Below are positions 6,348 to 50,997 of a stretch of DNA of 64,000 nt, piece by piece. The notes beneath the pieces were generated by a model that made no database searches, had not been told where the DNA came from, and saw only the letters and a program-made list of their open reading frames with translations. Within the stretch, counting starts at the first letter, position 1. Each line of letters opens with the position of its first letter. The stretch covers positions 186,001 to 250,000 of the forward strand of contig CP060764.1 in NCBI GenBank assembly GCA_023205875.1. The letters run 5' to 3'. This stretch comes from Chloropicon primus. Taxonomy: Eukaryota > Chlorophyta > Chloropicophyceae > Chloropicales > Chloropicaceae. Made by a program: the position numbers and the translations under genes.

Positions 6348-6942
6348 CCGTCTGTCTGTCTGTCTGTCTATGTCGATATCGACCTCTCGCCGAAGCTTCC
6401 GAATCCCCAATGGCCCTTCGTCTTCCGACCTCGCAGTGCAGTCATCAAGCAAGCACAGCGAGCGCTAAAGGTGCTACTGACGCCTCCTCGCCCTTCTGCT
6501 TCTCTCCTCTTCTCTCCTCCTCTCCTCTCCTCCAAAGTTGTTGTTGTTGTCGATGACGATGACGATGACGATGATGATGATGATGGATGATGTTCCTGGT
6601 GTTGATGACAATCTGGTCCACCAAAAAAGTCAAGCGAGGTATCCCCAGAAAGATCGCAAGACGAAGATTCGTTCTAATGAGGAGAAACTCTCGTCCCTTG
6701 ACCTCCTCTCCCTCTCCCTCTCTCTTCTCTCTCTCCGTCTCTCTCTCTCCTCTCGCGCGCGCGCCCAGCCGAAGTGAGGCATCCAGAATCTCTTGAGGAG
6801 TGCAAAGAGTGGTACACTCGTGGGACGCATCGGAGAGACGAACGGAGGAAAACCCAAACCGTTTCTTTCGAGGAGCGGAGCCGTTACGAGGTCGCCGCTC
6901 GTGGGGACTGTAACGTAACGGTAGCGGGAAGAGGGGCGGTTC
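6348..6942. promoter_or_regulatory. Divergent promoter ApaG protein / ABCG transporter
   Basis: 595 bp without a gene. It contains GTCT tetranucleotides (6352-6370), GAT/GACGAT triplets (6550-6590) and a long CT-rich tract (6700-6760) on the strand coding for the ABCG gene. No TATA-like element is evident. Confidence 0.4.
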
Positions 6943-12620: not shown

Positions 12621-13560
12621 CGTCCTTGTCCTCGTCCTCGTCCCCCGCGAGCGATGAGAACGCCGACTGACCCTTCTCTCTCTCTCTCTCTCTTCCCAGC
12701 CACAAGAGTAGTAAAACGGTTTTGCGGCTCGTGGCTGGGAAGAGAGACGAAGAGGATAAGGGTCGGTTTGGAAGTGTCCAAGCCGGAAGACACTGAGAAA
12801 ACGCCCTTGCCTTGAAGGCCGGGAGAGGAGGACAGGAGGACTGGAACACTGATGAATGTCTTGCTTGCTCTCCTTGTGTCGTATCTTCTCCTCGCTCGCT
12901 CGCTTGCTGTTTCCAAATGAAGGCCCTCACTTGATAAGAATGAGGGAGAGGGAGGAGAGGAGGTTGGTGGCTTGAGGCTGACAAACAAAGCAAGAGTAAA
13001 GTGTTGTGTGCATGAAAGATTGAAGATAATAAAGGATCATCAAGAAGCCGAGCCGACCTCTCCTCTTCTCTTCTCTTCTCTTCCCTTGATCTACATACAT
13101 CGATGCATATTCGAGGAACTCCTGGGAACGAGGAAAAAAAAGCTTGGTGATTTCGCGCGCGGCGTTGCACCCCTCGTCGATCGCTTTGGCTTGCGAAATC
13201 GAATCACTACCCACTCCAACCTTCGCATCTGAAAGGACCGCAGAAAGCAAAGAGGGAGCCTGGCGGGTCTGTGGTACGACTTGCGCGAACTCGAAAAATT
13301 TCAGTCACTTCGTTTTGAGATGGATTGGACGACTCGACTTCGAAACCCCGGGCATAGCACACACAAAAAAGGAGAATAATGAAAGGGAACCAAACATCAT
13401 TAATAAAGAAGAGAGAGACAGAGAGTTCATTCCATGCTTCAATGGTCACAGAAATGAGATATAATGCAGAACAAAGATGTAATGTTGCCCCCGCCCTCCA
13501 ACGTCGTCTGCTCCTGCTTCGAACTCCACGAAGGACTTGCACACTTTTAGGTTATTGACG
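12621..13560. promoter_or_regulatory. Sigma-factor upstream region, no gene seen
   Basis: About 940 bp of mixed-composition DNA upstream of the sigma-factor start. It has a CT run (12675-12696), CTCTT pentamer runs (13062-13085) and CGATCG at 13178. Short open frames on both strands show no recognisable domain and I did not call them. Confidence 0.4.
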
Positions 13561-19562: not shown

Positions 19563-19597
19563 ATAAGCTACTACTTAAACATCATCGCAGCATGTTT

Positions 19598-21559
19598 TTA
19601 CTTCTTCTTCATGGCCTCGTAGAGGGCATCGACTTGGCTCTGGTAGTGCTTGAGGAGCTGAGGCCTCTTCAACTTGAAAGTTGGGGTAAGAAGGTTCTCC
19701 TCGACGGAGAACTGGGTGGAATCCAAGTGGACGGCCTTGACGATCTCGAAACCCTTCATCTTGGCCTCCTTTCCGGTCTTCTTCAGCTCTCCGAGAATCA
19801 TCTCGTTGGCCTCCGGCGTCTTGCAGACGGCGGCGTAGTCTCCCGCGACTCCCTTCTCGCTGGCCCAGGCCATGATCTTCTCCTCGTTCGGGACAATCAC
19901 AGCAACGAGGCAGTTCTCGAAACTGTTCCCGTACACCCAGACCTGCTCCATGTTCAAGTTCTTCTTGTAGGCGCTCTCGAGGACCTCCACGGCGACGTAC
20001 TCTCCCTGGGAGAGCTTGAAGATGTTCTTCTTGCGGTCAATAATCTTGAGAGAGCCAAAGTCGGTGATCTCGCCAACATCTCCGGTGTGGAAGAACCCGT
20101 CCTTGTCGATCGCTCCCTTGGTCTGCGCCTCGTCCTTGTAGTAACCAGCGTAGACGGAGGGCCCCCTGATCAGGATCTCTCCCCTCGGTGGGTTGGTGAA
20201 AGGCGAGTAGTTCATCTCCGGCACGGCCTCGAGCCTGTACTCCACGCTCGGGGCAGGGACACCGACGGTCTTGTAGAACCTAATGTCATCAGGAACAGCA
20301 GTGAAGGAGGCGGCCATGGTCTCCGTGAGGCCATAGCCCTGGATGACGGGGCAGCACATGGAGGTCCTGAGGAACTGCTCGACGTGGGACGCAAGAGGAG
20401 CACCTCCGCTGACGATGACCCTACAGCAGCCTCCCAAGACAGCCTTGAGCTTTTTGAACAAGATCATGTTGAAAAGTGGCGCGGCCTTTGCCTGAGAAAC
20501 TCCCTTCTCGATTGCACTCCACTTTCTCTTCACACCGGTGGTGAACAAGAAGTTCTTGATGAAAGACGCCTGCATCTTGTTGCTGACCTTGGAGTAAATC
20601 CTGTCAAAAATTCTTGGCACGCCGGCGAAGATGGTGGGCTTAAGGGCAGCAACATCCTCGAGCAAGAGAAGCGGGCTGCCCCTCCAGTAACCGACGGCAC
20701 CTCCGGCGCAAAGGAAGGTCTCCTCGACGACTCTGTCGAAGATGTGAGCAAGAGGAAGGTAACTCATGAACCTATCCGTCTTGGAGATCGGGATCTTCTG
20801 GATTTCGAAGAGCTTCTCGATGGCGTTGAGCTCGGCGACCATGTTCTTGTGCTTGATCATCACACCCTTTGGATCGCCGGTGGTACCGCTGGTGTACATG
20901 ATGGTGCAGAGGTCCTCTGGCATTGGTCCGGCGTTCTCCTTCTTGTCGGCAGCGCCCTTCTCGAGGAACTGGTCGTAGGAGAAGACGTTGACGCCGAAGT
21001 CGTTGAGCTCCTTGAGCTCCTCCTCGGAGGGCTCTCCCCAGTACACCAAGGTGGTCACCGTGGGGATCTTTCCCTTGGTCTTCAGCAAGACGCTGATCTT
21101 CTTGGCGCTGATGAAAGCGACCTTGCACTCGGCGTGGTTTGTGATGTACTCCACGGCGTTCTCTCCCAAAGTATCGTAAAGGGGAACGCAAGCGGCGCCG
21201 ATCCTGTTGCAAGCCTGCATGGCGATCATCCACTCCGGGCAGTTTCCACTCAAGATTCCAACCTTTGTGCCGACATCGGCTCCCTCAGCGATGAGAGCGG
21301 AGGCGATCTTCTTCGTAGCGTCCATAACCTCGTTGTAGGTCAGCCACATGTATGGACCGTCCCCGTTCCTCTGGCCGAGGCACTTCTCCTCGCCAAACTC
21401 TTCCACCGACTTGGCGAAGAGTTCGCTCAAGGTGTAGCACCCCTTGTACTCGTAAGGCACCAAGCCATCCCCGCAGTTAAACAGTCTGTAAAGAGGTCCC
21501 TGAGTCTCATTCGCAGGCTCCACCTCCGTGATCCAGTTGTCCATTTGCAAAGCACTCAT
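19598..21559 (-). CDS. LACS: Long-chain acyl-CoA synthetase, copy 1
   Basis: 653 aa, intronless. ATP-dependent activation of free fatty acids to acyl-CoA (adenylate-forming family). The start ATG at 21559 gives MSALQMDNWITEVEPANETQG. P-loop-like adenylation motif YTSGTTGDPKGV near residue 245, YLPLAHIFDR, GYGLTETMA, YRLEAVPEMNYSPF, GEILIRGPSVYAGYYKDE, then FFHTGDVGEI, IDRKKNIFKLSQGEYVA and C-terminal VKAVHL with Lys-rich KLKRPQLLKHY. The C-terminus is MKKK; no obvious PTS1 or TM helix. Paralogue of the adjacent gene on the same strand, with near-identical DNA at the 3' end. Confidence 0.95.
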   Translation of the reverse strand: MSALQMDNWITEVEPANETQGPLYRLFNCGDGLVPYEYKGCYTLSELFAKSVEEFGEEKCLGQRNGDGPYMWLTYNEVMDATKKIASALIAEGADVGTKVGILSGNCPEWMIAMQACNRIGAACVPLYDTLGENAVEYITNHAECKVAFISAKKISVLLKTKGKIPTVTTLVYWGEPSEEELKELNDFGVNVFSYDQFLEKGAADKKENAGPMPEDLCTIMYTSGTTGDPKGVMIKHKNMVAELNAIEKLFEIQKIPISKTDRFMSYLPLAHIFDRVVEETFLCAGGAVGYWRGSPLLLLEDVAALKPTIFAGVPRIFDRIYSKVSNKMQASFIKNFLFTTGVKRKWSAIEKGVSQAKAAPLFNMILFKKLKAVLGGCCRVIVSGGAPLASHVEQFLRTSMCCPVIQGYGLTETMAASFTAVPDDIRFYKTVGVPAPSVEYRLEAVPEMNYSPFTNPPRGEILIRGPSVYAGYYKDEAQTKGAIDKDGFFHTGDVGEITDFGSLKIIDRKKNIFKLSQGEYVAVEVLESAYKKNLNMEQVWVYGNSFENCLVAVIVPNEEKIMAWASEKGVAGDYAAVCKTPEANEMILGELKKTGKEAKMKGFEIVKAVHLDSTQFSVEENLLTPTFKLKRPQLLKHYQSQVDALYEAMKKK

Positions 21560-22256
21560 CTTATGTGTATGTATGGGTCTAAACTTCAAAACGTTTTTCC
21601 TTTCCTTTCCTTCCTGATGCCAGCGAAGCTGCTGCTTTGTTGCTGCTGTGTGCGTCTCGACTTGAGAGCCTGAGAGCTGGACGAACGATAAGAGTAAAGT
21701 AGAACAAACCACAACCTGCTTGTGTTTGCCCGTGTTCCTTGCGCTTGCGCTTGACTCTTGGTCCTCGCGATGAGGTTGGCTTGTTGTGTCAACAAGCGCC
21801 GTCTCGATCCCCTTTCGTGGATGGTTTATGGATTTCGTTCCTGTGTCACGGCGTGGTATCGTGACGAGGATTACAATGACTTTACTACTGTGGCCGAACC
21901 TTCACTTCGCCGCCGACGACGACGTTTCAGAGAAACGACGAACGAAAAAAAATAATGCGAAATATCTCTCTCCTCTTTGGCTTGGGAAGGGGGGGAGGAG
22001 GAAGGGGGGGGAGGTCGAGAACATCGAGGGGAAGGGTTGTAACGTCTTGGCTCTTGAGGAGGCTGTCTTGCAAGAGCAATGCCATGGCCAAGATCAAGGG
22101 CGACACACCCAATGCTCCCACTTTAGAGCGGAGCAGACACCTTTGTGCGTGAATCATGATGTCAGTTTGTGGAAGAAACGAAATGAGTGAAAATGCATTG
22201 CAAGAAAGTAAAAGAAAGAAAGAAAAACTCTATCCACCCGTTCCGAGGGAAGCAAA
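21560..22256. promoter_or_regulatory. Spacer between tandem acyl-CoA synthetases
   Basis: 697 bp: promoter of copy 1 plus 3' flank of copy 2. Short frames across it show no domain. No conserved element recognised. Confidence 0.35.
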
Positions 22257-24299
22257 CTATTTGAGGGACGCGTACAAGGCATCGATCTTGCTCTTGTAGT
22301 GCTTGAGGAGCTGAGGCCTCTTCAACTTGAAGCTCGGGGTGAGGAGGTCCGTCTCGATAGAGAACTGCTCATAGTCCAAGTGGACGGCCTTGACGATCTC
22401 GAAACCCTTCAGCTTGGACTCCTTTCCGGTCTTCTTCAGCTCTCCGAGAATCATCTCGTTGGCCTCCGGCGTCTTGCAGACGGTGGCGTAGTCTCCCGCG
22501 ACGCCCTTGTCCTTGGCCCAGGCCATGATCTTCTCCTCGTTCGGCACGACGATCGCAACAAGGCAGTTCTCGAAACTGTTCCCGTACACCCAGACCTGCT
22601 CCATGTTCAAGTTCTTCTTGTAGACGCTCTCCACGACCTCCACGGCGACGTACTCTCCCTGGGAGAGCTTGAAGATGTTCTTCTTGCGGTCCACAATTTT
22701 CAGAGCTCCAGAGGGCTGGATCTCGCCGATGTCTCCGGTGTGGAAGAACCCGTCCTTGTCGATCGCTCCCTTGGTCTGCGCCTCGTCCTTGTAGTAGCCC
22801 GAGAACACGGAGGGGCCCCTGATGAGGACCTCCCCAGAGGGCGGGTCACTGAAGGGAGAGTAGTTCATCTCCGGCACGGCTTCGAGCCTGTACTCCACGC
22901 TCGGGAAGGGCACCCCGATGGTGGCAAACATCGACATGTCGTCGGGCACCGCGACGAAGGAGGCAGCGCAAGTCTCCGTGAGGCCGTAGCCCTGGACAAC
23001 GGCGCAACACATCGCGACCCTGAGGAATTTCTCGACGTGCGGGGCGAGGGGAGCCCCGCCGCTGATCATGATCCTCACGTTCCCCCCGAGCCTGGCCTTG
23101 ATCTTGCTGAAAATGATCTTGTCCATCAGCGGCGCGGCGTCGAACACGCTCGCCCCCTTTTTCATCGCACCAAACTTCCTGCTCATGGCAAACCTGTAGA
23201 GCATCCCGGCCACGAAGCTGGAGGACATCTTGGCCATCACGGCGCTGTAGATCCTGTCGAAAATTCGGGGGACTCCGCAGAAGAAGGTCGGCTTGAGCGA
23301 CCCAACGTCATCGAGAATCGCCTTGACGTTGCCCTGCCAGTACCCGATGCACCCCCCCTTGGCGATGACGAGCTCCTCGGTCATCCTGTCAAAGATGTGA
23401 GCCAGGGGAAGGTAGCTGAAGAACACCTCGTTCTCGGTGACTTCGCAGTTCACGGCCTTCAACTTTGCGCCCACGGCGTTGAGCTCCGACACGAGGGCGC
23501 TCTGAGGCAGGATGACGCCCTTGGGGTTTCCCGTGGTACCGCTCGTGTACATGATGGTGGCGATGTCGCTCGTCTTCGCCTTGACCGGCGCGGAGGGGCT
23601 CTTGGCCCCCGCGTCCAGCAGCTCGGGGAAGGAGTAAGACTTGACCTTGGCGGACTTGAGGGCCACCTTGTCCTCGTCGCTGGCCTCGCCCCAGTACACG
23701 ACGAGCTTCACGGTCGGCATGTTCCCCTTGGACTTGAGGAGGTTCCCCAGCTTCTCGCTCGAGACGAACACGGCCTTGCACTCGGCGTGGTTGAGGATGT
23801 ACTCCACGGCGTTCTCACCGAGGGTGTCGTACAGCGGGACGCACGCCACGTTGTTGCGGTTGCAGGCCTGCATCGCGATCATCCACTCGGGGCAGTTGGC
23901 CCCGAAGACCCCGATCTTGTCCTGGGACGCGATCCCCTCGGCGGCGAGGCCAGACCCCAGCAGCTTCACCTTCTCGCCCACCTCCCGGTAGGTCATCCAC
24001 TTGTACTCGCTGACGGTCCCGTCCTCCCCCTTGAGCCTCTTGCCGAGGCAGGGGTTGTCTGGGTAAAGCTCCACGGAACGCTCGAAGATCTCCAGCAAGT
24101 TGATGCACCCCTCGTACGTCGCACCCGCAAGGCCCTTGGCCGCCATCGACGACCGTATCAGGGGGCCCTGCGTCTCATTCGCGGGCTCCACCTCGCACAC
24201 CCAGCCCTCCTCAGGCCTCATCACACGAATCTCCCCTTGCTCTGGACTCGGTCCCTTGCCACTGAAACGGAACTTGTCTTCGCCCAAGCTCCCAGACAT
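22257..24299 (-). CDS. LACS: Long-chain acyl-CoA synthetase, copy 2
   Basis: 680 aa, intronless, ending TAG. Same reaction as copy 1. Motifs: YTSGTTGNPKGV near residue 250, YLPLAHIFDRMTEE, GYGLTETCAAS, YRLEAVPEMNYSPF, GEVLIRGPSVFSGYYKDE, FFHTGDIGEI, VDRKKNIFKLSQGEYVA. The N-terminus is about 25 residues longer than copy 1. The two proteins diverge in the N-terminal and central parts but share long identical stretches after the FKLSQGEYVAVEV block. The C-terminus is ASLK, not a clear peroxisomal signal. An inverted repeat lies just upstream of the start. Confidence 0.95.
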   Translation of the reverse strand: MSGSLGEDKFRFSGKGPSPEQGEIRVMRPEEGWVCEVEPANETQGPLIRSSMAAKGLAGATYEGCINLLEIFERSVELYPDNPCLGKRLKGEDGTVSEYKWMTYREVGEKVKLLGSGLAAEGIASQDKIGVFGANCPEWMIAMQACNRNNVACVPLYDTLGENAVEYILNHAECKAVFVSSEKLGNLLKSKGNMPTVKLVVYWGEASDEDKVALKSAKVKSYSFPELLDAGAKSPSAPVKAKTSDIATIMYTSGTTGNPKGVILPQSALVSELNAVGAKLKAVNCEVTENEVFFSYLPLAHIFDRMTEELVIAKGGCIGYWQGNVKAILDDVGSLKPTFFCGVPRIFDRIYSAVMAKMSSSFVAGMLYRFAMSRKFGAMKKGASVFDAAPLMDKIIFSKIKARLGGNVRIMISGGAPLAPHVEKFLRVAMCCAVVQGYGLTETCAASFVAVPDDMSMFATIGVPFPSVEYRLEAVPEMNYSPFSDPPSGEVLIRGPSVFSGYYKDEAQTKGAIDKDGFFHTGDIGEIQPSGALKIVDRKKNIFKLSQGEYVAVEVVESVYKKNLNMEQVWVYGNSFENCLVAIVVPNEEKIMAWAKDKGVAGDYATVCKTPEANEMILGELKKTGKESKLKGFEIVKAVHLDYEQFSIETDLLTPSFKLKRPQLLKHYKSKIDALYASLK

Positions 24300-33388: not shown

Positions 33389-36300
33389 CTACGACTTGTC
33401 GCTCGTGGGCGGCGGGGTGATCTTCGGGCTGATGATCGGAGAGACCTTGGAGGTGCTCCTCTCGCTGTTGATCATGGAAGTGTTCCTCTTCGAACCCTGC
33501 AGGGTGGAGTTGAGGATGTCCGTGGCGGTGTTGTTGACGTTGTTGGTGTTGTTCATCGAGGGGACGACGGAGCCCACGGCGTAGAACGCCTTGGAGCCCG
33601 TGATCCCGATGCACGTTCCGCCGAAGGCCACGACGGAGGCCAGGGTGATCAGGATGAACCGAACGGTGATCTCTACGTCCAGGGCCAGGACCACGGGCAG
33701 GATCACGATGCAGACTATGGTCGAGTTGTAGAGCCCGAAGAAGATGGACTTGGACTCCTGGAAGTCGTCCTGGACGTCCTTGATCTTGTAAGCGATGTAG
33801 GCGCTGTAAATGATCAGGACGGCGTGGACAAAGACCGTGAGGAGGAAAGTGATGTTCCCGGTATTGTCCTTGCAGACCTCCTTGACGACGCTCTCCCCGT
33901 TCACGATCCTGACCTCCGTCTGGGCCTCCGGAGGGGCGACGGCGAGGTGCACGATCAGCATGGTCACCGCCAGCCCAAGGAGCTTGAAGAAGATCACCAG
34001 CATCTTGTTGGTCGTCAGGATCACCTTCTTCATGGCCTGGTTGTTGAAGATGGAGTCGATCCGGATCATCTTGGTGAGGAACGCGGTGTACATGACGGAA
34101 ACCCCCAGGAACACGCACAGCGGGGTCAGGGTGCAGGTGCTGTCGGTGGGCTTCCCGATCAGCCAGAACGGCGTGAGGAGGCCAATCACACCTCCCGCGC
34201 AGGCGATGATCACGAACACGGGCTGGGACCTCCTGATCGCCTTCTCCTGGGCCTTGGCCGAGTAGATGACCATGAGCACGAACAGCACTAACATCACGAG
34301 CAGGAGGATGGTCATCATGGCGATGGCGACGGCCGAGTCCGCCACAATGTACTCGCACTGGAACGTAAAGTCGCTCGGCAGGGCGGAGCCCTCGACGCAG
34401 GCAGACCCGTTGGCCCCAGACCTCTGGCCAGCGACACAGCAGTCCGAAGGGAGCTGGGGGTTCCCGAACAGAGGGTTCTTCCAGGAGTACGTCCCCTTCC
34501 TCTCGTTGTTGTCGTCGCACTGGCTCAAGACAATGTTCCAGTTGCTCGCGGTGCAAGCAGCAGGCCTCGCGAAGCACTCTCCCGCGATGTCGACCGTCTC
34601 CAAGTCGCTCTCTGGCGTGCCCCCAGTGTCCTTCGTCGTGAACTGGATCTGGCCATCAAGGCAGTTGGTGACCTTGACCTTGAGCGTGCTGAGCTTCCCG
34701 GTGTAAGGCAATGCCGAGACCCGGGCCGTGCCGTCGTAGAGCTCCAGGGGGCCAGAGAAGGACACGATCTTCATGTTGACCTCATCGTCGTCCTGGTTCA
34801 GGAGGAAGCCAAGGTCGGAGAGCAGGGTCATGACGCCCTCCTTCGCCGTCGCTTGGTTCGACTTGAGGATCGGAGGATCGTTCACCTGCTGAATCTTCAG
34901 GGTGATCTTGGCGTTGTCGCTCCTCCTGTACCTGTCGTAAGGGCAATCATACGCAGCGAACTCAAAGGCATCGTCCCCGTAAGCGTCCTTGTCGGGCAGG
35001 TAGTAGACAGACTTGGAAGGGTACTCGAGAGCTCCGTCGGGGAGCTGGGTGGAGCCGAACATCTGCACGTAGTCAATCTCATTCCAGTCAGGAACCGCAG
35101 CGGTATCCAACTCGACCCTAATCGTGTTGGACTTGAACGGTGGCTGGCAGACGGTCGGGCCAAACTTCCTGAACTGCTGGAACTTGGAGTGGTGCTTCTG
35201 AATGTCGTTCGACGCGGTGCCCTCCCACAGCTTGTAGTACTTCTTCGCGCCCTCGTTCCACGTTCTCACTTGGTTCACGGCTCCCATGCCCCTGTTCTCG
35301 CCGATCTCCACCCCCATCACGTACAGGGGCTGGGTGTAGTTGACCTCCAGGTACTCGTACGCCCCGTTCTCGGCAAAGTAAGCAATCGGGTCGTGCTTGA
35401 ACGAGATGATGCTGTCCGAGAATTCCGTGAGCGAGCCCTCCGTTCCGGCTTTCCACAGGGGACTCCAGGCGAGGGGAGTGTCCCCGAACGAGTCCACGCT
35501 AGGCGGCCCAAGTGCCTGAATTGGATGGTAACTCACGCTCTTTCCATTTCCCCAGAATGAGCTCACTTGCGTCACGTTGTAAGCGTACTGGTAGATCGGC
35601 TCCTGAAGGCTGTAGGGCGTGAAAGGCTTTATGATCTCAGCTCCAACGCTGCCGTCGCTGTTCTCAAGAAAGAGCTTTCCCTTCTGTGGCAGCTTCGTGA
35701 TCACCATCGTGTACATGTCCGTCTCCGGGTCGAGGACATCCAAAGAGATTTTCTCGTGTGCCTGGTCCTCTTCGAGGTTGACAGTCTTGCTCGAACAGAT
35801 CGGAACGTCGTCCAGGGCAAAGATGCTGTACGTTCCAGTAATCTCGAGGGTGGTAGCCAGAGAGTCCAACAACTCGAACTTGACCGCGCCGGGGACCTCG
35901 CCGGACCGGTCCAAGGCGAGCTTGCAAATCGCGTAACCCGGCTCCGGCAAGACTCCTCCCTCAACTGCTTTGCTCCCCACGTTGAAGTCCAAGTTCTGGT
36001 TCGTGAAGTACTTGGTCGCGTAAAGGCAGTCCTCGTTGTCCTTGAGCACCTTCACGCTGCAATCCAGGCCGAGGGTGTTGTGGCACCCCAAATTCATCGT
36101 GAAAGGCTTGTCCTCGATAGGAGTCATGGTGAAGACCTTGCTGGGAAGGTCTTCTGAGATCTTCATCTCCCCCGCGATGAGGATCTTCATCTTGTACGAC
36201 ACCGTGTTGTCCGCCACGGGATGAAAAGTCACCTCGTCGGAGGTGGGCTGAGCGCCCCCTCCTATTGCTGGCGCGGTGTACTTGTAGTTCCTCGTCTTGG

Positions 36301-37417
36301 CCGAGCCTCCCGCGGTAACGTCCACTCCGTCAGGGTCCGTCATCAGCCCACTTGGGCCCACGGTCACCTCGATGTCGTACGGAAGCTCGATGTCAGTCAC
36401 GAGAGGGGTGGTGCCGTCGTACCCAGAGACAGCGACGTTCAACTGGTAGTCCGCTCCGCCGTTCTTCACAAGGTCGAACTCGTTGGCCGTTCCAACGCCC
36501 TCAAGGGGTGCCGAGGAGACCACCAAAAGCGGCTTTACTCCCGTAAAGGTCTTCTCCTCGTTGGTGTCCGTGAACGTGTCCCCGTCCTTGAAACCACCGA
36601 GAATCAAGTCGTAGAAGGCACCACCGCTTCCTTGGTTCTCCAAGAAGGATCCACTCGGGCCGCCGCTCCTCAGGGTCGACTCCTCGAACGTGTGCCGCAC
36701 CTTGAGGGACGCGTCGTTGGTGGAAATGAGCAGCTTCTGCCAGTTGGCACCGATGTCCGCCTCGCTCACGACCTTGTTGTACATGCACAACTCGTCGAAC
36801 TGCCCGTAAAAGTTCGAGGACTTGATCGTCTCTCCCGCGTTGAAGGTGTACATGCCAAGGGTGAAGTAGCCCTGGCTCGCTGCATTGAACTCCAGGGGCT
36901 TGGCATCGTAAGATGCGGTGTAGAACTTGGTTCCGTTCACGTACACAAGCAAAGACGTCGAGTCCACGGTGATGGTAATACGATGCCATTCCAAAGTATC
37001 CGGAACCGATTTCAAGGACGAGGGCTCCGACAAGCGATGGAAGTACCTAAGGTCAGCAGTGCCCTGGCTTGCCTCGGTCCCCGTTCTCATCGCATCGTCG
37101 TTGGAAGAGTACTCCATGTGAAACATCTGGAGGTAGTTCTTATCGGTTGCAGTGATGAACGAGAAGTGGCAGAACCGAGACATGTGTTGTATCGTGCTTC
37201 CACCGTAAGTCTTCACCCAGTAGTCCACCGTCATGCCGTCCGTGAAGTCTCCGTCTTGGAGCAGGTCACGAAACCCGGCAGCTGACATACCCCCGAAAGG
37301 GAAGTACAGACTCTTCCCGTACCCATGAACCGCAGTCGACGCCCGTACGAGAGGCACAAGACTTTGCAGGACAACCACGCAAGAGAATGCGGCTAGAATT
37401 CTGACAGAGACTGCCAT
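33389..37417 (-). CDS. Class C-like seven-transmembrane receptor with LamG-type ectodomain
   Basis: 1,342 aa, intronless. The start ATG at 37417 gives a signal peptide (MAVSVRILAAFSCVVVLQSL). Residues about 30-240 look like a LamG/concanavalin-type domain (YFPFGGMSAAGFRDL, DYWVKTYGG, WHRITITVDSTSLLVYVNGTK, FYGQFDELCMYNKVVSEADI). A long ectodomain follows, with Ig/cadherin-like repeats and a possible discoidin/F5-8C-like module around 640-770 (YLEVNYTQPLYVMGVEIGEN, TIRVELDTAAVPDWNEIDYV). Seven TM helices lie at about 1015-1270, with class C features such as RRSQPVFVIIACAGGVIGLL and FLTKMIRIDSIFNN after TM3. A Ser/Thr/Asn-rich tail follows (about 70 aa). Ligand unknown; class C 7TM proteins with variable ectodomains occur in many protists. 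Confidence 0.82.
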   Translation of the reverse strand: MAVSVRILAAFSCVVVLQSLVPLVRASTAVHGYGKSLYFPFGGMSAAGFRDLLQDGDFTDGMTVDYWVKTYGGSTIQHMSRFCHFSFITATDKNYLQMFHMEYSSNDDAMRTGTEASQGTADLRYFHRLSEPSSLKSVPDTLEWHRITITVDSTSLLVYVNGTKFYTASYDAKPLEFNAASQGYFTLGMYTFNAGETIKSSNFYGQFDELCMYNKVVSEADIGANWQKLLISTNDASLKVRHTFEESTLRSGGPSGSFLENQGSGGAFYDLILGGFKDGDTFTDTNEEKTFTGVKPLLVVSSAPLEGVGTANEFDLVKNGGADYQLNVAVSGYDGTTPLVTDIELPYDIEVTVGPSGLMTDPDGVDVTAGGSAKTRNYKYTAPAIGGGAQPTSDEVTFHPVADNTVSYKMKILIAGEMKISEDLPSKVFTMTPIEDKPFTMNLGCHNTLGLDCSVKVLKDNEDCLYATKYFTNQNLDFNVGSKAVEGGVLPEPGYAICKLALDRSGEVPGAVKFELLDSLATTLEITGTYSIFALDDVPICSSKTVNLEEDQAHEKISLDVLDPETDMYTMVITKLPQKGKLFLENSDGSVGAEIIKPFTPYSLQEPIYQYAYNVTQVSSFWGNGKSVSYHPIQALGPPSVDSFGDTPLAWSPLWKAGTEGSLTEFSDSIISFKHDPIAYFAENGAYEYLEVNYTQPLYVMGVEIGENRGMGAVNQVRTWNEGAKKYYKLWEGTASNDIQKHHSKFQQFRKFGPTVCQPPFKSNTIRVELDTAAVPDWNEIDYVQMFGSTQLPDGALEYPSKSVYYLPDKDAYGDDAFEFAAYDCPYDRYRRSDNAKITLKIQQVNDPPILKSNQATAKEGVMTLLSDLGFLLNQDDDEVNMKIVSFSGPLELYDGTARVSALPYTGKLSTLKVKVTNCLDGQIQFTTKDTGGTPESDLETVDIAGECFARPAACTASNWNIVLSQCDDNNERKGTYSWKNPLFGNPQLPSDCCVAGQRSGANGSACVEGSALPSDFTFQCEYIVADSAVAIAMMTILLLVMLVLFVLMVIYSAKAQEKAIRRSQPVFVIIACAGGVIGLLTPFWLIGKPTDSTCTLTPLCVFLGVSVMYTAFLTKMIRIDSIFNNQAMKKVILTTNKMLVIFFKLLGLAVTMLIVHLAVAPPEAQTEVRIVNGESVVKEVCKDNTGNITFLLTVFVHAVLIIYSAYIAYKIKDVQDDFQESKSIFFGLYNSTIVCIVILPVVLALDVEITVRFILITLASVVAFGGTCIGITGSKAFYAVGSVVPSMNNTNNVNNTATDILNSTLQGSKRNTSMINSERSTSKVSPIISPKITPPPTSDKS

Positions 37418-38433
37418 GTTTGCCAAACCCTGGAGGACCAGAATTTCTCTTTGTTGTGTTGCTCCAATCCCCCTCAACCCTTATGGGTTCACCAAACCAC
37501 ACGAACACACACGAAACCCTCCTCCACAAGCCAAGTGTGGTGGTGGTTGTGTGTGTGTGTGTGTGTGTGTGTGTTTGGCCTCTTCTCTGCTTGACCCAAG
37601 CCACCCAAGCACCACAGAGTGTGCGTCTGACTCTGGCGCTGGCTTGACCCAACCCAAGAGCGTGAGACCAAGGACGAGCCGAGAGGCCTTGTGTGTGGAT
37701 GGAAACGGTCTTTGTGTCCCCTTGGGCCTTGTCAACGTCTTGTCCACGCAAGACAGCAAGACATAGCCCTCCCTCTCCTTGGAGTGTTGCTTGAGCAACG
37801 GAGGAAACGAAAGTAATTAAGGGAATTGCTCAAGTAACAACCCAGGGCCAGGGCCACCTCAACAAAAAGGTAATCTTCTTCGAGGGGGAGGAGGTCAAAG
37901 AGACTTCTCTTCCTTTACGAACAAGGGACGACGTTAGTGTGTACTGTGGAAAGGATTAAGCAAACCCTCTCTCGAGTGCACTTGGCTCATCGTAAGGCGA
38001 GGACACTTCACGTCTCTCACGAGGAGGGAAACGTTTTTGAGGTTTGAGGCGTCACACAAGCCCGAGGGACCCATGCCAAGCGATCGAGTCATGGAGATTA
38101 TCCCTCCCCTCTCTTCTCTCTTCTTCCTCTCCTCCTTCCACCTCCTCTCTTCTCTGTCTGTGTGTGTGGATCAGGCTCCTTTTGAAGTTTGAGCAACAGA
38201 AGAGAGGAGAAGGACACCAACAGCCAACGAGCGTGGACTTGTCGTTTCCCTTGCTTCCTCCACGCGTTTGAAGTTTTGCCCCACGTGCCGCTCGCTGCTC
38301 GGTTGCCTCGGGACACTCCACTTGTCGTGGCGATCTTGGACGAGAAACTGAAACGCTCAAGGGGAGAGAGGAACACTTTTTGAAGCTTGGACGTGAGGAG
38401 AGCAGAGGGGCACAGAGGGGTGGCTGGTGAAAG
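37418..38433. promoter_or_regulatory. Divergent promoter GPCR / pyruvate kinase
   Basis: About 1 kb without a gene. It has a GT dinucleotide run (37548-37574), CGATCG at 38081 and CT-rich sequence (38100-38160). Short frames overlap the GPCR start in antisense and are not called. Confidence 0.4.
37548..37574. repeat. (GT)n microsatellite
   Basis: About 13 GT units upstream of the GPCR gene. Confidence 0.9.
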
Positions 38434-44034: not shown

Positions 44035-47000
44035 ATGGCATCCTGTGGCCGCCGAAGGGCGATTCTTTGTGCTTTTATTCTGGCATCTTGGACACTTGCC
44101 TGTGGTCAAATCACACCAGAACAGGCTTGCCCAAACGCACTCAAGGCGGGACAGCCAAACTGCCAGAATGGTGGAACACTGTACTTTGAGAACAAGGATC
44201 AGACGCACTCCACGAGCTGCGCTCACTGCAATTGTCCCGACCAGTGGAGAGGCACGGATTGCTCAAGTAAGTCGCGTGGCTTCCCACAACAAGCCAAGAC
44301 TCAAAACCTCTGACCCAGTTCCTCTGACTTGCATGCAAACTTTCTCGTCGTTTTGATATCAAAATGGTTTTCCAATAACAGTATGCAAGTCCATCGATAG
44401 TTGTCCCCCAATCAAGGTGAACAACGAGACTCTGCACGCCCTTGCTTGCACGAACGATGCAATCATTCCCAACAGCGAGGAGATGATCGTGGGTAAGAAG
44501 ATCTCTTGCACTTGCGGCGGGGACGCGTTCTCAGACTTTGCTTGCATGAACCAACCCGACTTGAATATGCTCGTGGATCTGACGGGAGACCTTTCCAAGG
44601 GGATGGCGGTGATGAACGTCAAGCAGTTCTCTGGCATGCCGAATCAAGCTGCGCCATGCACCAAGGATGCATGTTATCCGAAGAAGAGGTACGAGTATGC
44701 TTACCCACAGGCGTGGGAGGCAGACTTTCTGCGCTGCAAGTCAGTGACCGAGGACTGCCAGGTGCCACTGAACACGAAGCAAAAGTGCTTGGTGATCGAG
44801 TGCGAGACATCGGATGTGTCTTGCCCCCCGAAAAGCGTTCCAAAGTGCCCGGAATTCTCCACGACGTCGCCGTATTGTGCGCACTTCAAATGCGAGAACG
44901 CCACGCAGTGCCCGCCAGAAGGAACCAGCGACTACTGGCAGCACCACTGCTACGAGAAAGCAACGCCGCCCCAGAACTCTTCCGTGACGTTCAGGTGCAT
45001 GGAGACTCCTACAGAGTCCGACGAGAGGTTCCACTGCGCTTTTTCGTACGCAAACATGAACTTTCCAACCTTCATAGGATTGAAATGCTCAGTTGGAAAC
45101 TGCATCTATCAGAAGCCAGGGCCGCCACCGGCACCGCCACCGTACGTGCCACCTGACCACGTGCCCACGCACATCCCCCACCTCATCCTTATGCTGTGCT
45201 GCTCGCTGCTGTCCTTTGCTTTCGTCGGCATCATCATCCGCGACCAGAAGCAGAGGGACACCCTGCCAAAGAATTTGATTCCATACATGCTGCCAACGTC
45301 CAAGGAGAACGACTTGATGATGGAAGACCGCTTGCTTCTGCACGAGAAGACGCGGAACTACATTTCTTGGAAGAACCTTACGTGCACGAGCTCGAGCTTT
45401 CTGAAAGTAAACAACATGCCCCTCCTGTCCAACGCGAGTGGATGGGCAGGCCATCTCATGGATGGAAACGGCCTGACCGCCATCATGGGGCCTTCCGGTG
45501 CGGGGAAGACGACTCTCCTCGACGCGATTTCGGGGAGAGCCAAGTCTATCCGCGTCCAGGGAGAAGTGCGGCTGAACGGCTGGATCGCCTCGCCCAAGCA
45601 GCTCAGGGCGATCTCCGGGTTTGTGATGCAAGACGACATCCTCCCTGGCACCTCCACCGTTTGGGAGTACTTCATGTTCAACGCCATGCTGAGGATGCCG
45701 CAGCGCTTGAGGAAGGAGTACAAGCGCCAGCGCGTGTTCGAGATCATCCAGCAGCTTGGCCTCACCAAGGTGGCCATGAGCTTGATCGGAGACGAATTTG
45801 TCAGGGGCCTGTCCGGCGGGGAGAAGAGGCGGCTCTCGATTGGCGTCGAGATATTGGTTTGCCCCCCTGTTCTCTTCTTGGACGAGCCGCTCTCTGGACT
45901 GGACAGTAGCAACGCGGGCAAGGTGATGAGTACGTTGGGCGACATCGCGGCTTCTGGCATCGCCGTGGTCCTGACCCTTCATCAGCCGAGGCCTGACATG
46001 CTGCTGACCATCGACAGGCTGATGGTCCTGTCCGCAGGTGGCTGCACCGTGTACTCTGGTCCCACGAGCCAGCTCGAATCTTATCTGGGTGAGATTGGCC
46101 ACACGACTCCAGAGTCCATGACACCTGTGGACTTCCTCCTTGAGCTCCTCGTGAACTCGGACGACTTTGGAGTCAGCGGTGGATTGAAGGGATTCTGCGA
46201 CGAGGTTGATTTTGAGGTCGAAGAGAGCTTCAGGTCCAGCAGGGGGGAGGATCTGTGGGAAGCATTGAATGATCGGGTCCCGTTCCTCGTGCAAATGCAG
46301 ATGCTTTCGGGGAGGTCTCTACGCAGCATTTACAGGAACAAGTACACCCTGTTCGTCAACTTTTTCTTGACCTTCATCGTCGCAATAAGCGTGGGAACCA
46401 TCTTTTTCAATTCGCAGAACAACACGGGTGGGATTCAGAACAGGTTCGGGAGCATTTTCTTCATCTTGCTGTACTTGGGAATGACATCTCTGGGCCTGCT
46501 GCCCATTTGGAGGGAACAGTGGATCCTCTTCTTGAAGGAGAATGCGTCTGGCACTTACTCCTCCTTCGCTTACTTTTTGAATATGGTGGTGTACGAGGTC
46601 ATCCTGACGAGGCTGATCCCGCCCATGTTCTTCGCCGTCTTCTCGTACTGGATGATCAGCCTGAACGACACCAACGGCTTCAGCATCTTCCTGTTCACGT
46701 TGGTGCTGATTCTGACGAACATTGCTGCGAGCAGCATGAGCATTCTGGTTGGACAGTTGTCGACTTCAAACGCTGTCTCAAATGTCATCGGAACCATGGC
46801 CACGCTGATCTTTGTCGTGTTTGGGGGCTTCTTCTTGAACAAGAACACCATCCCCGTAGGCCTTCAGTGGCTGGCAAACATCTCGTTCTTCAATTATGCT
46901 TATGAGGTTCTCGTGGTGAATGAATTCCATTACACAAACCAGATGTTCAATTTTACTGCGCCGCTGACGAATCAGTCGGTCACCATTCCGACTTCCGGCG

Positions 47001-48406
47001 ACGGAATCTTGGAAGTCTTTGGATTCGACTGGAGAAGGTTGCCGTCCGACCTGGTGATCCTGGTCATCATCATCGGCGTCATCCTGTGCATGACGTACAT
47101 GGTCCTCTTCCTCAAAGTGAAAAGGGCGTGGAACAACCACATTTCGTCCCCATCTTACCACGAGGACGACTCGCGTGCCGACGACGTCAGGCTGGCCCCG
47201 AACCTGCCATACACTCTGCACGGCAAGAACGATCGCGACTCGCACCTCCTTGCGGATAATTCCCAGAACATCATGGTGGATTTGCGGGCAGAGTACCTCA
47301 TCTTATCGTGGACCAAACTGTGCTGCTCGACCTTTGACAAGCAAGGAGTGGGATCCATCGTTCAGCATGCCTCCGGCCTCGCAATGAAGTACGCGATGAC
47401 CGCCATCATGGGGCCTTCCGGTGCGGGGAAGTCGACTCTTCTCGACGCGATTTCGGGGAGAGCCAAGTCTGTCCGCGTCCAGGGAGAAGTGCGGCTGAAC
47501 GGCTGGATCGCCTCGCCCAAGCAGCTCAGGGCGATCTCCGGGTTTGTGATGCAAGACGACATCCTCCCTGGCACCTCCACCGTTTGGGAGTACTTCATGT
47601 TCAACGCCATGCTGAGGATGCCGCAGCGCTTGAGGAAGGAGTACAAGCGCCAGCGCGTGTTCGAGATCATCCAGCAGCTTGGCCTCACCAAGGTGGCCAT
47701 GAGCTTGATCGGAGACGAATTTGTCAGGGGCCTGTCCGGCGGGGAGAAGAGGCGGCTCTCGATTGGCGTCGAGATATTGGTTTGCCCCCCTGTTCTCTTC
47801 TTGGACGAGCCGCTCTCTGGACTGGACAGTAGCAACGCGGGCAAGGTGATGAGTACGTTGGGCGACATCGCGGCTTCTGGCATCGCCGTGGTCCTGACCC
47901 TTCATCAGCCGAGGCCTGACATGCTGCTGACCATCGACAGGCTGATGGTCCTGTCCGCAGGTGGCTGCACCGTGTACTCTGGTCCCACGAGCCAGCTCGA
48001 ATCTTATCTGGGTGAGATTGGCCACACGACTCCAGAGTCCATGACACCTGTGGACTTCCTCCTTGAGCTCCTCGTGAACTCGGACGACTTTGGAGTCAGC
48101 GGTGGATTGAAGGGATTCTGCGACGAGGTTGATTTTGAGGTCGAAGAGAGCTTCAGGTCCAGCAGGGGGGAGGATCTGTGGGAAGCATTGAATGATCGGG
48201 TCCCGTTCCTCGTGCAAATGCAGATGCTTTCGGGGAGGTCTCTACGCAGCATTTACAGGAACAAGTACACCCTGTTCGTCAACTTTTTCTTGACCTTCAT
48301 CGTCGCAATAAGCGTGGGAACCATCTTTTCAATTCGCAGAACAACACGGGTGGGATTCAGAACAGGTTCGGGAGCATTTTCTTCATCTTGCTGTACTTGG
48401 GAATGA
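44035..48406 (+). CDS. ABCG transporter, 5' part: ectodomain-NBD1-TMD1-NBD(hybrid)-start of TMD copy
   Basis: Exon 1 (44035-44266) and exon 2 from 44382; the intron (44267-44381) has GTAAGT donor and AACAG acceptor, phase 1. Signal peptide (RRAILCAFILASWTLACG), an EGF-like Cys cluster, a Cys-rich ectodomain to about residue 320, one TM helix (HLILMLCCSLLSFAFVGIII), then NBD1: Walker A GPSGAGKTT, signature GLSGGEKRRLS, Walker B VLFLDEPLSGLDSS, His in TLHQPRPD. TMD1 of six helices and a linker follow, then a second NBD (Walker A GPSGAGKST) and the start of a second TMD copy. This frame closes at 48406 because the second TMD copy lacks one T of a five-T run (46403-46407 versus 48326-48329). About 1,418 aa. 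See the downstream part and the repeat entries. Confidence 0.82.
45474..47403 (+). repeat. ABCG internal tandem duplication, unit 1
   Basis: First copy of the 1,923-bp unit (NBD1-TMD1-linker). Its homology with unit 2 starts at the TGACCGCC before Walker A. Differences seen from unit 2: 45509 A/T, 45517 C/T, 45548 A/G, and the five-T versus four-T run. Confidence 0.9.
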
Positions 48407-49325
48407 CATCTCTGGGCCTGCTGCCCATTTGGAGGGAACAGTGGATCCTCTTCTTGAAGGAGAATGCGTCTGGCACTTACTCCTCCTTCGCTTACTTTTT
48501 GAATATGGTGGTGTACGAGGTCATCCTGACGAGGCTGATCCCGCCCATGTTCTTCGCCGTCTTCTCGTACTGGATGATCAGCCTGAACGACACCAACGGC
48601 TTCAGCATCTTCCTGTTCACGTTGGTGCTGATTCTGACGAACATTGCTGCGAGCAGCATGAGCATTCTGGTTGGACAGTTGTCGACTTCAAACGCTGTCT
48701 CAAATGTCATCGGAACCATGGCCACGCTGATCTTTGTCGTGTTTGGGGGCTTCTTCTTGAACAAGAACACCATCCCCGTAGGCCTTCAGTGGCTGGCAAA
48801 CATCTCGTTCTTCAATTATGCTTATGAGGTTCTCGTGGTGAATGAATTCCATTACACAAACCAGATGTTCAATTTTACTGCGCCGCTGACGAATCAGTCG
48901 GTCACCATTCCGACTTCCGGCGACGGAATCTTGGAAGTCTTTGGATTCGACTGGAGAAGGTTGCCGTCCGACCTGGTGATCCTGGTCATCATCATCGGCG
49001 TCATCCTGTGCATGACGTACATGGTCCTCTTCCTCAAAGTGAAAAGGGCGTGGAACAACCACATTTCGTCCCCATCTTACCACGAGGACGACTCGCGTGC
49101 CGACGACGTCAGGCTGGCCCCGAACCTGCCATACACTCTGCACGGCAAGAACGATCGCGACTCGCACCTCCTTGCGGATAATTCCCAGAACATCATGGTG
49201 GATTTGCGGGCAGAGTACCTCATCTTATCGTGGACCAAACTGTGCTGCTCGACCTTTGACAAGCAAGGAGTGGGATCCATCGTTCAGCATGCCTCCGGCC
49301 TCGCAATGAAGTACGCGATGACCGC
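47404..49325 (+). repeat. ABCG internal tandem duplication, unit 2 (hybrid NBD)
   Basis: Second copy, one base shorter. The NBD starts like the third NBD (T at 47432, T at 47440, G at 47471) and ends like the first (G at 48011, where the third has A at 49933; then AACTCGGACGAC). The TMD and linker match unit 1 apart from the missing T. Confidence 0.9.
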
Positions 49326-50997
49326 CATCATGGGGCCTTCCGGTGCGGGGAAGTCGACTCTTCTCGACGCGATTTCGGGGAGAGCCAAGTCTGTCCGCGT
49401 CCAGGGAGAAGTGCGGCTGAACGGCTGGATCGCCTCGCCCAAGCAGCTCAGGGCGATCTCCGGGTTTGTGATGCAAGACGACATCCTCCCTGGCACCTCC
49501 ACCGTTTGGGAGTACTTCATGTTCAACGCCATGCTGAGGATGCCGCAGCGCTTGAGGAAGGAGTACAAGCGCCAGCGCGTGTTCGAGATCATCCAGCAGC
49601 TTGGCCTCACCAAGGTGGCCATGAGCTTGATCGGAGACGAATTTGTCAGGGGCCTGTCCGGCGGGGAGAAGAGGCGGCTCTCGATTGGCGTCGAGATATT
49701 GGTTTGCCCCCCTGTTCTCTTCTTGGACGAGCCGCTCTCTGGACTGGACAGTAGCAACGCGGGCAAGGTGATGAGTACGTTGGGCGACATCGCGGCTTCT
49801 GGCATCGCCGTGGTCCTGACCCTTCATCAGCCGAGGCCTGACATGCTGCTGACCATCGACAGGCTGATGGTCCTGTCCGCAGGTGGCTGCACCGTGTACT
49901 CTGGTCCCACGAGCCAGCTCGAATCTTATCTGAGTGAGATTGGCCACACGACTCCAGAGTCCATGACACCTGTGGACTTCCTCCTTGAGCTCCTCGTGGA
50001 CTCTACAGAAGTGGTCGTAGCAAAGATTACCGAGTCGTACTCCAAGAGCGTCCTGATGGCCGATGAGATGAAGCAACTGGATCAACTGGTGTTGAATACA
50101 AATCAGACGGCGTCCAGCATCCCAGCCATAGCCCGAAGCTGCAGTGCCGTGTTCGAGTTCGGTCTTCTGCTGAAAAGGGCTGTCATTGCAAACGCCAGGT
50201 CCCCCCTTCTCATTACTTTGAACTTGGTGTCATCGCTCTTAATCGCATTTTCTGTTGGATTCATCTTCAAAGATGCAGGCACGGACACGAGTGGAATCCA
50301 AATGAGAATGGGAAGCCTCTTCTTCATACTCTTGTATTTGTCGATGATAAGCTTGGGCTCGATACCGGTGTGGCATCAGGAGCACAGAATCTTCTTGAAG
50401 GAGCACAGCAGCGGCTTGTACAGAATTTGGACCTATTTCTTGGCAGTGGTCGTGAACGAATTTGTGCTGCTTCGAAGCCTGCCCCCCGTCGCATTCTGCT
50501 GGTCCTACTACCTGATTAAACTTCGCGGAGAGGCGCACAGCTCGCACATGGTCACTTTTGTGACTTGCCTTGTCCTCTGCAATTGCACGCTGACAGGGAT
50601 AGTCTTCATCATCGGTGCAGCAACGCGAAAGACGAGCCTTGCCAATGTCCTGGGAAGTGTTGTGATGCTGCTCTCTACGCTCTTTGCGGGATATCTGCTG
50701 AACAAGAGCGACATGAGCAGGCTGATCAGCCTGCTGTCGCACCTCTCACCCCTGGAGTATGCGTTCCAGATACTCCTTGTGAACGAGTTCCATGGCTTGC
50801 CCAAGGGTTACTTCCACTTCACGGACCCGAGCGACAAGCACGCATCGGGCATAGCGGTGAGCGGGGACACGATCTTGGTCACCTTTGGGTTTTTCCCCGG
50901 TGGCAATGGGAACAATTATATTACACTTGCAGGAATACTGGCTGCGAGCTTGGTCGCCAGCTTTTTCCTGCTCAAGTCCGGGACTTTCAAGAACTAA
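48388..50997 (+). CDS. ABCG transporter, 3' part: TMD copy-NBD3-TMD2
   Basis: 869 aa from the ATG at 48388 (MLYLGMTSLG), in the frame that continues the second TMD copy after the one-base deletion. It probably belongs to the same gene as 44035-48406 rather than to a separate one; the frame is open upstream to the deletion and there is no promoter spacer. Order: rest of the TMD1 copy, linker, third NBD (Walker A GPSGAGKST, signature GLSGGEKRRLS, Walker B LFLDEPLSGLDSS) to about 49998, then a distinct TMD2 (IANARSPLLITLNLVSSLLI, FILLYLSMISLGSIPVWHQE) to LKSGTFKN. TGTAA at 51021 follows the stop. An ancestral full-size NBD1-TMD1-NBD2-TMD2 gene is inferred. Confidence 0.8.
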   Translation: MLYLGMTSLGLLPIWREQWILFLKENASGTYSSFAYFLNMVVYEVILTRLIPPMFFAVFSYWMISLNDTNGFSIFLFTLVLILTNIAASSMSILVGQLSTSNAVSNVIGTMATLIFVVFGGFFLNKNTIPVGLQWLANISFFNYAYEVLVVNEFHYTNQMFNFTAPLTNQSVTIPTSGDGILEVFGFDWRRLPSDLVILVIIIGVILCMTYMVLFLKVKRAWNNHISSPSYHEDDSRADDVRLAPNLPYTLHGKNDRDSHLLADNSQNIMVDLRAEYLILSWTKLCCSTFDKQGVGSIVQHASGLAMKYAMTAIMGPSGAGKSTLLDAISGRAKSVRVQGEVRLNGWIASPKQLRAISGFVMQDDILPGTSTVWEYFMFNAMLRMPQRLRKEYKRQRVFEIIQQLGLTKVAMSLIGDEFVRGLSGGEKRRLSIGVEILVCPPVLFLDEPLSGLDSSNAGKVMSTLGDIAASGIAVVLTLHQPRPDMLLTIDRLMVLSAGGCTVYSGPTSQLESYLSEIGHTTPESMTPVDFLLELLVDSTEVVVAKITESYSKSVLMADEMKQLDQLVLNTNQTASSIPAIARSCSAVFEFGLLLKRAVIANARSPLLITLNLVSSLLIAFSVGFIFKDAGTDTSGIQMRMGSLFFILLYLSMISLGSIPVWHQEHRIFLKEHSSGLYRIWTYFLAVVVNEFVLLRSLPPVAFCWSYYLIKLRGEAHSSHMVTFVTCLVLCNCTLTGIVFIIGAATRKTSLANVLGSVVMLLSTLFAGYLLNKSDMSRLISLLSHLSPLEYAFQILLVNEFHGLPKGYFHFTDPSDKHASGIAVSGDTILVTFGFFPGGNGNNYITLAGILAASLVASFFLLKSGTFKN
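49326..49998 (+). repeat. Third NBD copy of the ABCG locus (ancestral NBD2)
   Basis: About 670 bp nearly identical to the first and second NBDs. Homology ends at CTCCTCGTG, after which TMD2 is unrelated at DNA level. It differs from NBD1 at three residues by eye (T/S in Walker A, I/V, G/S). Confidence 0.85.

What the first reader, a model, noticed from the sequence alone, without database searches (positions are those of the whole stretch)
44035..50997. Internal unequal crossover: 1,923-bp NBD-TMD unit duplicated inside an ABCG gene
Three NBDs at period 1,923 bp are seen directly. The middle NBD begins with the variants of the third (T47432, T47440, G47471) and ends with those of the first (G48011). 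The TMD-linker between NBD2 and NBD3 copies TMD1. This is exactly the product of misaligned exchange between NBD1 and NBD2 of an NBD-TMD-NBD-TMD gene, with the exchange point between about 47472 and 48010. A three-module ABC protein would be new; a collapsed or expanded assembly could give the same picture.
Basis: partly seen in the sequence, partly recalled or inferred. Interest (0 to 1): 0.75.

Follow-up and report, generated by a model that had tools for sequence, protein, structure and literature searches.

The report
Duplicated, frame-broken ABC transporter gene
In a nuclear gene for a two-part membrane pump, probably from an alga, one 1.9-kb part appears twice in tandem, but the extra copy lacks one base and breaks the reading frame, so the sequence as given does not encode a three-part pump, and the extra copy could also be an assembly error.

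Summary
The repeat is present as described. Three NBD copies start at 45474, 47397 and 49319; the middle one begins like the third and ends like the first. At an offset of 1,923/1,922 bp the tandem copies agree from 45549 to 48010 with no substitution and one indel.

The middle unit has TTTT (48326-48329) where the first has TTTTT (46403-46407). The main frame then stops at 48404-48406, just after the first helix of the middle TMD; the rest lies in another frame (48388-50997). As given, no three-module protein is encoded.

The parental gene looks like a two-module ABCG transporter with a Cys-rich N-terminus. Its two NBDs differ at 4 of 680 bases although its TMDs are 31% identical as protein (100 of 324). 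This suggests recent gene conversion, which made the direct repeat that then recombined, in the cell or in the assembler.

A real but broken duplication (about 0.45) and a false tandem duplication (about 0.4) are nearly tied: no reads, relatives or whole genome were available. A working three-module ABC protein needs the missing base to be a sequencing error in a real duplication (about 0.1).

The parts
44035..44266 (+). predicted exon 1: signal-peptide-like start and a Cys-rich, EGF-like stretch
   Evidence: ATG at 44035; in-frame join to exon 2 over a GT-AG intron. Predicted only, no transcript data; 'EGF-like' is by eye.
44267..44381 (+). predicted intron (GTAAGT...CAG)
44382..45473 (+). 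Cys-rich N-terminal region and one hydrophobic segment (about 45188-45244) before NBD1
   Evidence: translation; hydropathy
45474..46153 (+). NBD1 repeat copy (Walker A GPSGAGKT, signature LSGGE, Walker B, LHQP)
46154..47396 (+). TMD1 (six hydrophobic segments) and linker; T5 run at 46403-46407
47397..48076 (+). middle NBD: starts with the variants of the third copy, ends with that of the first; all four motifs kept
47472..48010 (.). interval of 539 bp in which the exchange (or false join) must lie
48077..49318 (+). second copy of TMD1 and linker, one base shorter
48326..48329 (+). T4 run where the first copy has T5: one-base deletion that shifts the frame
48404..48406 (+). TGA stop that ends the main frame after the shift
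48388..50997 (+). second open frame: the rest of the middle TMD, third NBD, TMD2
49319..49998 (+). third NBD copy (NBD2 of the presumed parental gene)
49999..50997 (+). TMD2, 31% identical to TMD1 as protein, and the stop codon

Best explanation
A full-length ABCG gene (Cys-rich N-terminus, NBD1-TMD1-NBD2-TMD2) first had its two NBDs made nearly identical by gene conversion (inferred). The resulting direct repeat of about 680 bp then recombined out of register: NBD2 of one copy exchanged with NBD1 of another somewhere in what is now 47472-48010, which added a second NBD-TMD1 unit of 1,922-1,923 bp (the shape is shown, the event inferred). Soon afterwards the middle unit lost one T of a T5 run, so the gene now makes at most NBD1-TMD1-NBD-(first helix) and is most likely a non-functional or transient allele. 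The presumed ancestor, a two-module transporter, is what would have worked. In this reading the duplication is really in the sequenced genome.
For: Hybrid middle NBD with 3 left variants of the third copy and 1 right variant of the first; 0 substitutions over 852 + 1,607 bp between tandem copies; the exchange interval lies inside the stretch where NBD1 and the last NBD are identical. The last NBD differs from NBD1 at 4 of 680 bases (one synonymous, three not), while TMD1 and TMD2 share 100 of 324 aligned residues and DNA identity in 100-column bins drops to about 0.6-0.7 on either side. The tandem copies differ less than the NBD pair (0 of 1,922 v 4 of 680 substitutions, Fisher p = 0.0046), which orders the events. 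Frame break. Consensus quality looks good elsewhere: 15 of the 20 long ORFs given to Pfam carry a family above its cut-off, together 10,497 codons (about 31.5 kb) of uninterrupted frame. The two larger frame changes that the codon scan showed in other genes and that I opened (16.3-17.4 kb and 62.5-63.8 kb) sit at GT-AG introns. Of six homopolymer runs of 5 or more in the unit, including C6 and G6, only this T5 differs between copies. Copies that differ by one base are not what a purely repeated graph node would give (inference).
Against: No reads, read depth, relatives or own genome could be consulted. Zero substitutions beside one homopolymer indel is a pattern more typical of consensus error than of mutation (general knowledge). 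The long ORFs were chosen because they are long, so broken genes may be under-represented; a frame change near 12.5 kb, at the start of the sigma-factor gene, was looked at and not resolved. Vertebrate long-read assemblies contain false partial tandem duplications inside genes (PMC8081667, passages).
Confidence: 0.45

Rival explanations
1. False tandem duplication: the genome holds an ordinary two-module gene, and the assembler passed twice through the NBD1/NBD2 repeat, or laid two alleles or poorly corrected read sets end to end. The one-base difference is then an allele difference or an uncorrected indel.
For: The repeat of about 680 bp, identical over 539 bp, is just the structure that invites this; the copies have 0 substitutions and one homopolymer indel. 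[quoted passage not shown]
Against: There are no Ns in 64 kb, and long reads would span repeats this short; sequencing method unknown. Two copies that differ by a base must come from reads or alleles that were kept apart. No other comparable near-identical repeat appears in the window.
Confidence: 0.4
2. A working three-module ABC protein (NBD-TMD) x 3: the duplication is real, and the missing T is a consensus error or is bypassed.
For: Apart from that one position neither frame has a stop within the modules, and all three NBDs keep Walker A, LSGGE, Walker B and LHQP.
Against: The frame is broken as given. No X XXY YYZ heptamer in the main frame lies in the overlap of the two frames, 48193-48404 (this tests only that one type of slip). 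No sign of frequent indel errors in 31.5 kb of other coding frame. A third module has no place in the usual NBD dimer (general knowledge).
Confidence: 0.1
3. The locus is two genes in tandem, split by the frame break, each used on its own.
For: Two long open frames, 44417-48406 and 48388-50997.
Against: The frames overlap, and the second begins inside a TMD with no NBD before it; the first in-frame Met lies in a membrane segment. The 48.3-kb stretch is identical to the inside of TMD1, so it has no promoter of its own that TMD1 would lack (inference).
Confidence: 0.02

Closest known systems
ABCG full-size transporters (NBD-TMD)2, including the PDR group
   Same: NBD before TMD in each module, two such modules in the presumed parental gene; PF00005 and PF01061 above cut-off; solved relatives include ABCG2, plant ABCG16 and ABCG25, and CDR1.
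   Different: Cys-rich N-terminal region; PF08370 not among the Pfam matches at E up to 0.001 and the PDR model TIGR00956 far below its cut-off for either open frame (455.1 and 301 v 1959 bits). The two NBDs are nearly identical, both with canonical motifs, whereas NBD1 of fungal PDR pumps is degenerate (recalled).
Algal ABC proteins of odd domain order (Chlamydomonas CrABCA3, TMD-NBD-TMD-TMD-NBD)
   Same: Domain numbers that depart from one or two modules have been reported from an alga (PMC9605142, passages).
   Different: Those are annotated protein architectures; here the third module is in a broken frame and is a near-exact DNA copy.
False partial tandem duplication within a gene (GABRG2 in an earlier zebra finch assembly)
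   Same: Near-identical internal tandem copy that could be read as a new gene form (PMC8081667, passages).
   Different: There shown to be an error by a better assembly; here no second assembly could be consulted.
Gene conversion between ABCG2 and its paralogue in birds (PMC7362505; seen in a search listing only)
   Same: The listing shows the term gene conversion in a paper on ABCG paralogues.
   Different: That is between genes; here it would be between two domains of one gene. Not opened.

Membership tests
ABCG subfamily | NBD N-terminal to TMD, ABC_tran plus ABC2_membrane domains | tested here: met
   PF00005 and PF01061 above their cut-offs in both open frames, in that order; best solved relatives are ABCG2 and other ABCG chains (best 60 of 138 shown).
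PDR-type full-size ABCG | match to the PDR family model / PDR-associated domain PF08370 | tested here: not met
   TIGR00956 455.1 and 301 bits v cut-off 1959; PF08370 absent from the matches at E up to 0.001. Caveat: the two broken frames were scanned apart, which lowers whole-protein scores.
White/pigment-precursor-type ABCG (TIGR00955) | score above the curated cut-off | tested here: not met
   694.2 and 489.7 bits v 736.35; best-scoring model of those listed, but below cut-off even with two stretches summed in the first frame.
Three-module ABC protein | one uninterrupted frame through three NBD-TMD modules | tested here: not met
   Stop at 48404-48406 after a one-base deletion.
Product of unequal exchange between direct repeats | tandem copies joined through a hybrid repeat whose two sides match different parents | tested here: met
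   Three left variants as in the third copy, one right variant as in the first.
Product of unequal exchange between direct repeats | present in the physical genome (reads across it) | not testable with these tools
   No reads; no genome held.
Gene-converted NBD pair | near-identity including silent sites, ending abruptly inside diverged homologues | tested here: met
   4 of 680 bases differ; 100-column bins fall from 0.97-1.0 to 0.6-0.7 at both ends; TMDs 100 of 324 identical residues. The conversion event itself is inferred.

The most novel reading that the evidence does not exclude
A eukaryotic ABCG gene that keeps its two NBDs identical by gene conversion and therefore expands and contracts by whole NBD-TMD units, with three-module alleles real in the population and, in copies without the missing base, translated as a three-module ABC transporter.
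Probability: 0.08. Interest if true: 0.75.

Novelty: new member of a known kind. Interest (0 to 1): 0.3.

Why it matters
If the duplication is real, it catches an early step in the gain or loss of ABC modules: NBD conversion makes a repeat, the repeat recombines, and the extra module decays. It would also show that two NBDs of one pump can be homogenised while its TMDs stay far apart, so NBD trees for this gene would record conversion and not the age of the fusion. If it is an artefact, it is a caution: near-identical NBDs inside one gene are a place where assemblies can invent a three-module transporter.

Tried and rejected
Own genome: the genome search 'own' was answered with an error, no genome held; not tried another way. 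Relatives: one viral-contig scan found no relative (it finds close relatives only); the one genome-contig scan gave a single weak match of 36 residues in a Ruminococcus MAG, not used. Metagenome contigs was not called, its cap being 0. Structure prediction was not run: the homology to solved ABCG chains (E down to 9.6e-78) already settles the fold, and the question turns on reads.

Rejected: an intron as the cause of the frame change at 48.3 kb. The same stretch is read straight through in the first copy, and no such intron is needed there (inference from identity). Rejected: -1 slippage at a standard heptamer, none found in the main frame between 48193 and 48404. Rejected: the other ABCG gene of the window (6943-10530) as donor of the NBD sequence, since its NBD region aligns with 88 of 240 identical residues. 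Considered and dropped: pure purifying selection as the reason for NBD identity, since silent sites agree too (1 silent difference in 680 bp).

Literature on three-module ABC proteins: 0 papers; 3 papers, passages of 1 opened; 50 papers, 15 listed, none of the 15 with 'three nucleotide-binding'; 32 papers, 15 listed, 0 occurrences of the three architecture strings in those 15; passages of 1 opened; 268 papers, 12 listed, none opened. No three-module ABC transporter appeared in what I saw; most listed papers were not opened, and subscription journals are largely missing from the library. In PMC4649718 the phrase 'three NBDs' refers to ancestral NBDs; in PMC5742209 'NBD3' labels ABCF proteins without TMDs.

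Full report
What was checked. The region 44035-50997 holds three copies of an NBD-coding repeat at 45474, 47397 and 49319, spaced 1923 and 1922 bp. Compared without gaps, the first and middle copies differ at 45509, 45517 and 45548 and then agree up to the indel; the middle and third copies agree up to 48010 and differ first at 48011. Between the tandem copies 852 bp left and 1,607 bp right of the indel were compared, with 0 mismatches in each. In the whole window no other direct repeat of this identity is listed; the next, the acyl-CoA synthetase-like pair, is 87% over 300 nt.

The middle unit has four Ts (48326-48329) where the first unit has five (46403-46407). The main open frame ends at 48404-48406; a second open frame runs from 48388 to 50997. 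The break falls at the end of the first hydrophobic segment of the middle TMD: of six such segments in TMD1, the first frame keeps one of the middle copy and the second frame holds the other five (hydropathy). So Pfam sees two NBDs and one full TMD in the first frame, and one NBD and two TMD stretches in the second. As given, the sequence does not encode a three-module protein.

The presumed parental gene. Predicted exon 1 (44035-44266) and a GT-AG intron (44267-44381) lead into a long exon; the N-terminal part is Cys-rich and ends in a hydrophobic segment near 45188-45244. These are predictions without transcript data. Both modules are ABCG-like: NBD before TMD, PF00005 and PF01061 above cut-off, best solved relatives ABCG2 and other ABCG chains (E down to 9.6e-78 for 45377-47398). 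It does not reach the cut-off of the PDR model or of the pigment-precursor model, with the caveat that each broken frame was scanned apart. All three NBD copies keep GPSGAGK(T/S), LSGGE, the Walker B stretch and LHQP (motif meaning recalled).

The NBDs are too alike. NBD1 and the last NBD differ at 4 of 680 bases, one silent and three not. TMD1 and TMD2 share 100 of 324 aligned residues, and DNA identity falls to about 0.6-0.7 per 100 columns on either side of the NBD plateau. Selection on protein would not keep silent sites alike, so a recent conversion of one NBD by the other is the likely cause (inference). The tandem unit is younger still: 0 of 1,922 substitutions against 4 of 680 (Fisher p = 0.0046). 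The order is then conversion, a few substitutions, unequal exchange, loss of one T.

Real or artefact. Both give the same hybrid middle NBD. For a real duplication: the copies are not quite identical, the window has no Ns, and the consensus looks clean: 15 of 20 long ORFs given to Pfam carry a family above cut-off, together 10,497 uninterrupted codons. Taking 0 indels in about 31.5 kb, the rule of three gives under about 1 error per 10.5 kb, so fewer than about 0.2 expected in a 1.9-kb unit (my arithmetic). Two frame changes in other genes lie at GT-AG introns; one near 12.5 kb, at the start of the sigma-factor gene, stayed unresolved. Those ORFs were picked for length, which favours clean genes. 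For an artefact: no substitution but one homopolymer indel, a repeat that invites false joins, and the published frequency of false duplications, including partial ones inside genes (PMC8081667, passages). I could find no test in the sequence that decides, and I put the two at 0.45 and 0.4.

Could a three-module protein still be made? No X XXY YYZ heptamer lies in the main frame in the overlap 48193-48404; other kinds of bypass were not tested. It would need T5 in the real middle unit. I give that about 0.1. In the papers I could search I saw no three-module ABC transporter (mostly listings, few papers opened). Algal ABC proteins of odd domain order have been reported, such as TMD-NBD-TMD-TMD-NBD in Chlamydomonas (PMC9605142, passages).

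Setting. The window has spliceosomal-type introns and genes for a JmjC protein, SAS-6, plastid-type sigma factor and EF-Ts, which suggests a plastid-bearing eukaryote with centrioles (inference). No genome is held for it, and scans of viral and prokaryote collections gave no useful relative. The species remains unknown.

Verdict. The better lasting lead is the NBD homogenisation inside one transporter gene.

Noticed in passing
window 19592-21712 and 22245-24299, minus strand: Tandem pair of acyl-CoA synthetase-like genes (the second matches AMP-binding): DNA identity mostly 0.59-0.78 per 100 columns, rising to 0.83-0.93 near the 3' ends, which may be an older patch of gene conversion.
   Followed up: partly
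window 6943-10530, plus strand: A second, single-module ABCG-type gene with a Cys-rich N-terminus (PF19055, PF00005, PF01061); its NBD region shares 88 of 240 residues with NBD1.
   Followed up: partly
window 33389-37477, minus strand: Long ORF (1,362 aa) that joins a Laminin_G_3 match and a weak cadherin-like match to a class C seven-helix receptor domain, 7tm_3.
   Followed up: no
window 4644-6452, minus strand: ORF of 602 aa with two ApaG (DUF525) stretches, an unusual length for a domain known mostly from small proteins (recalled).
   Followed up: no
window about 12480-12690, minus strand: Change of best coding frame at the start of the sigma-factor gene in the codon scan; intron, alternative start or error not resolved.
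   Followed up: partly
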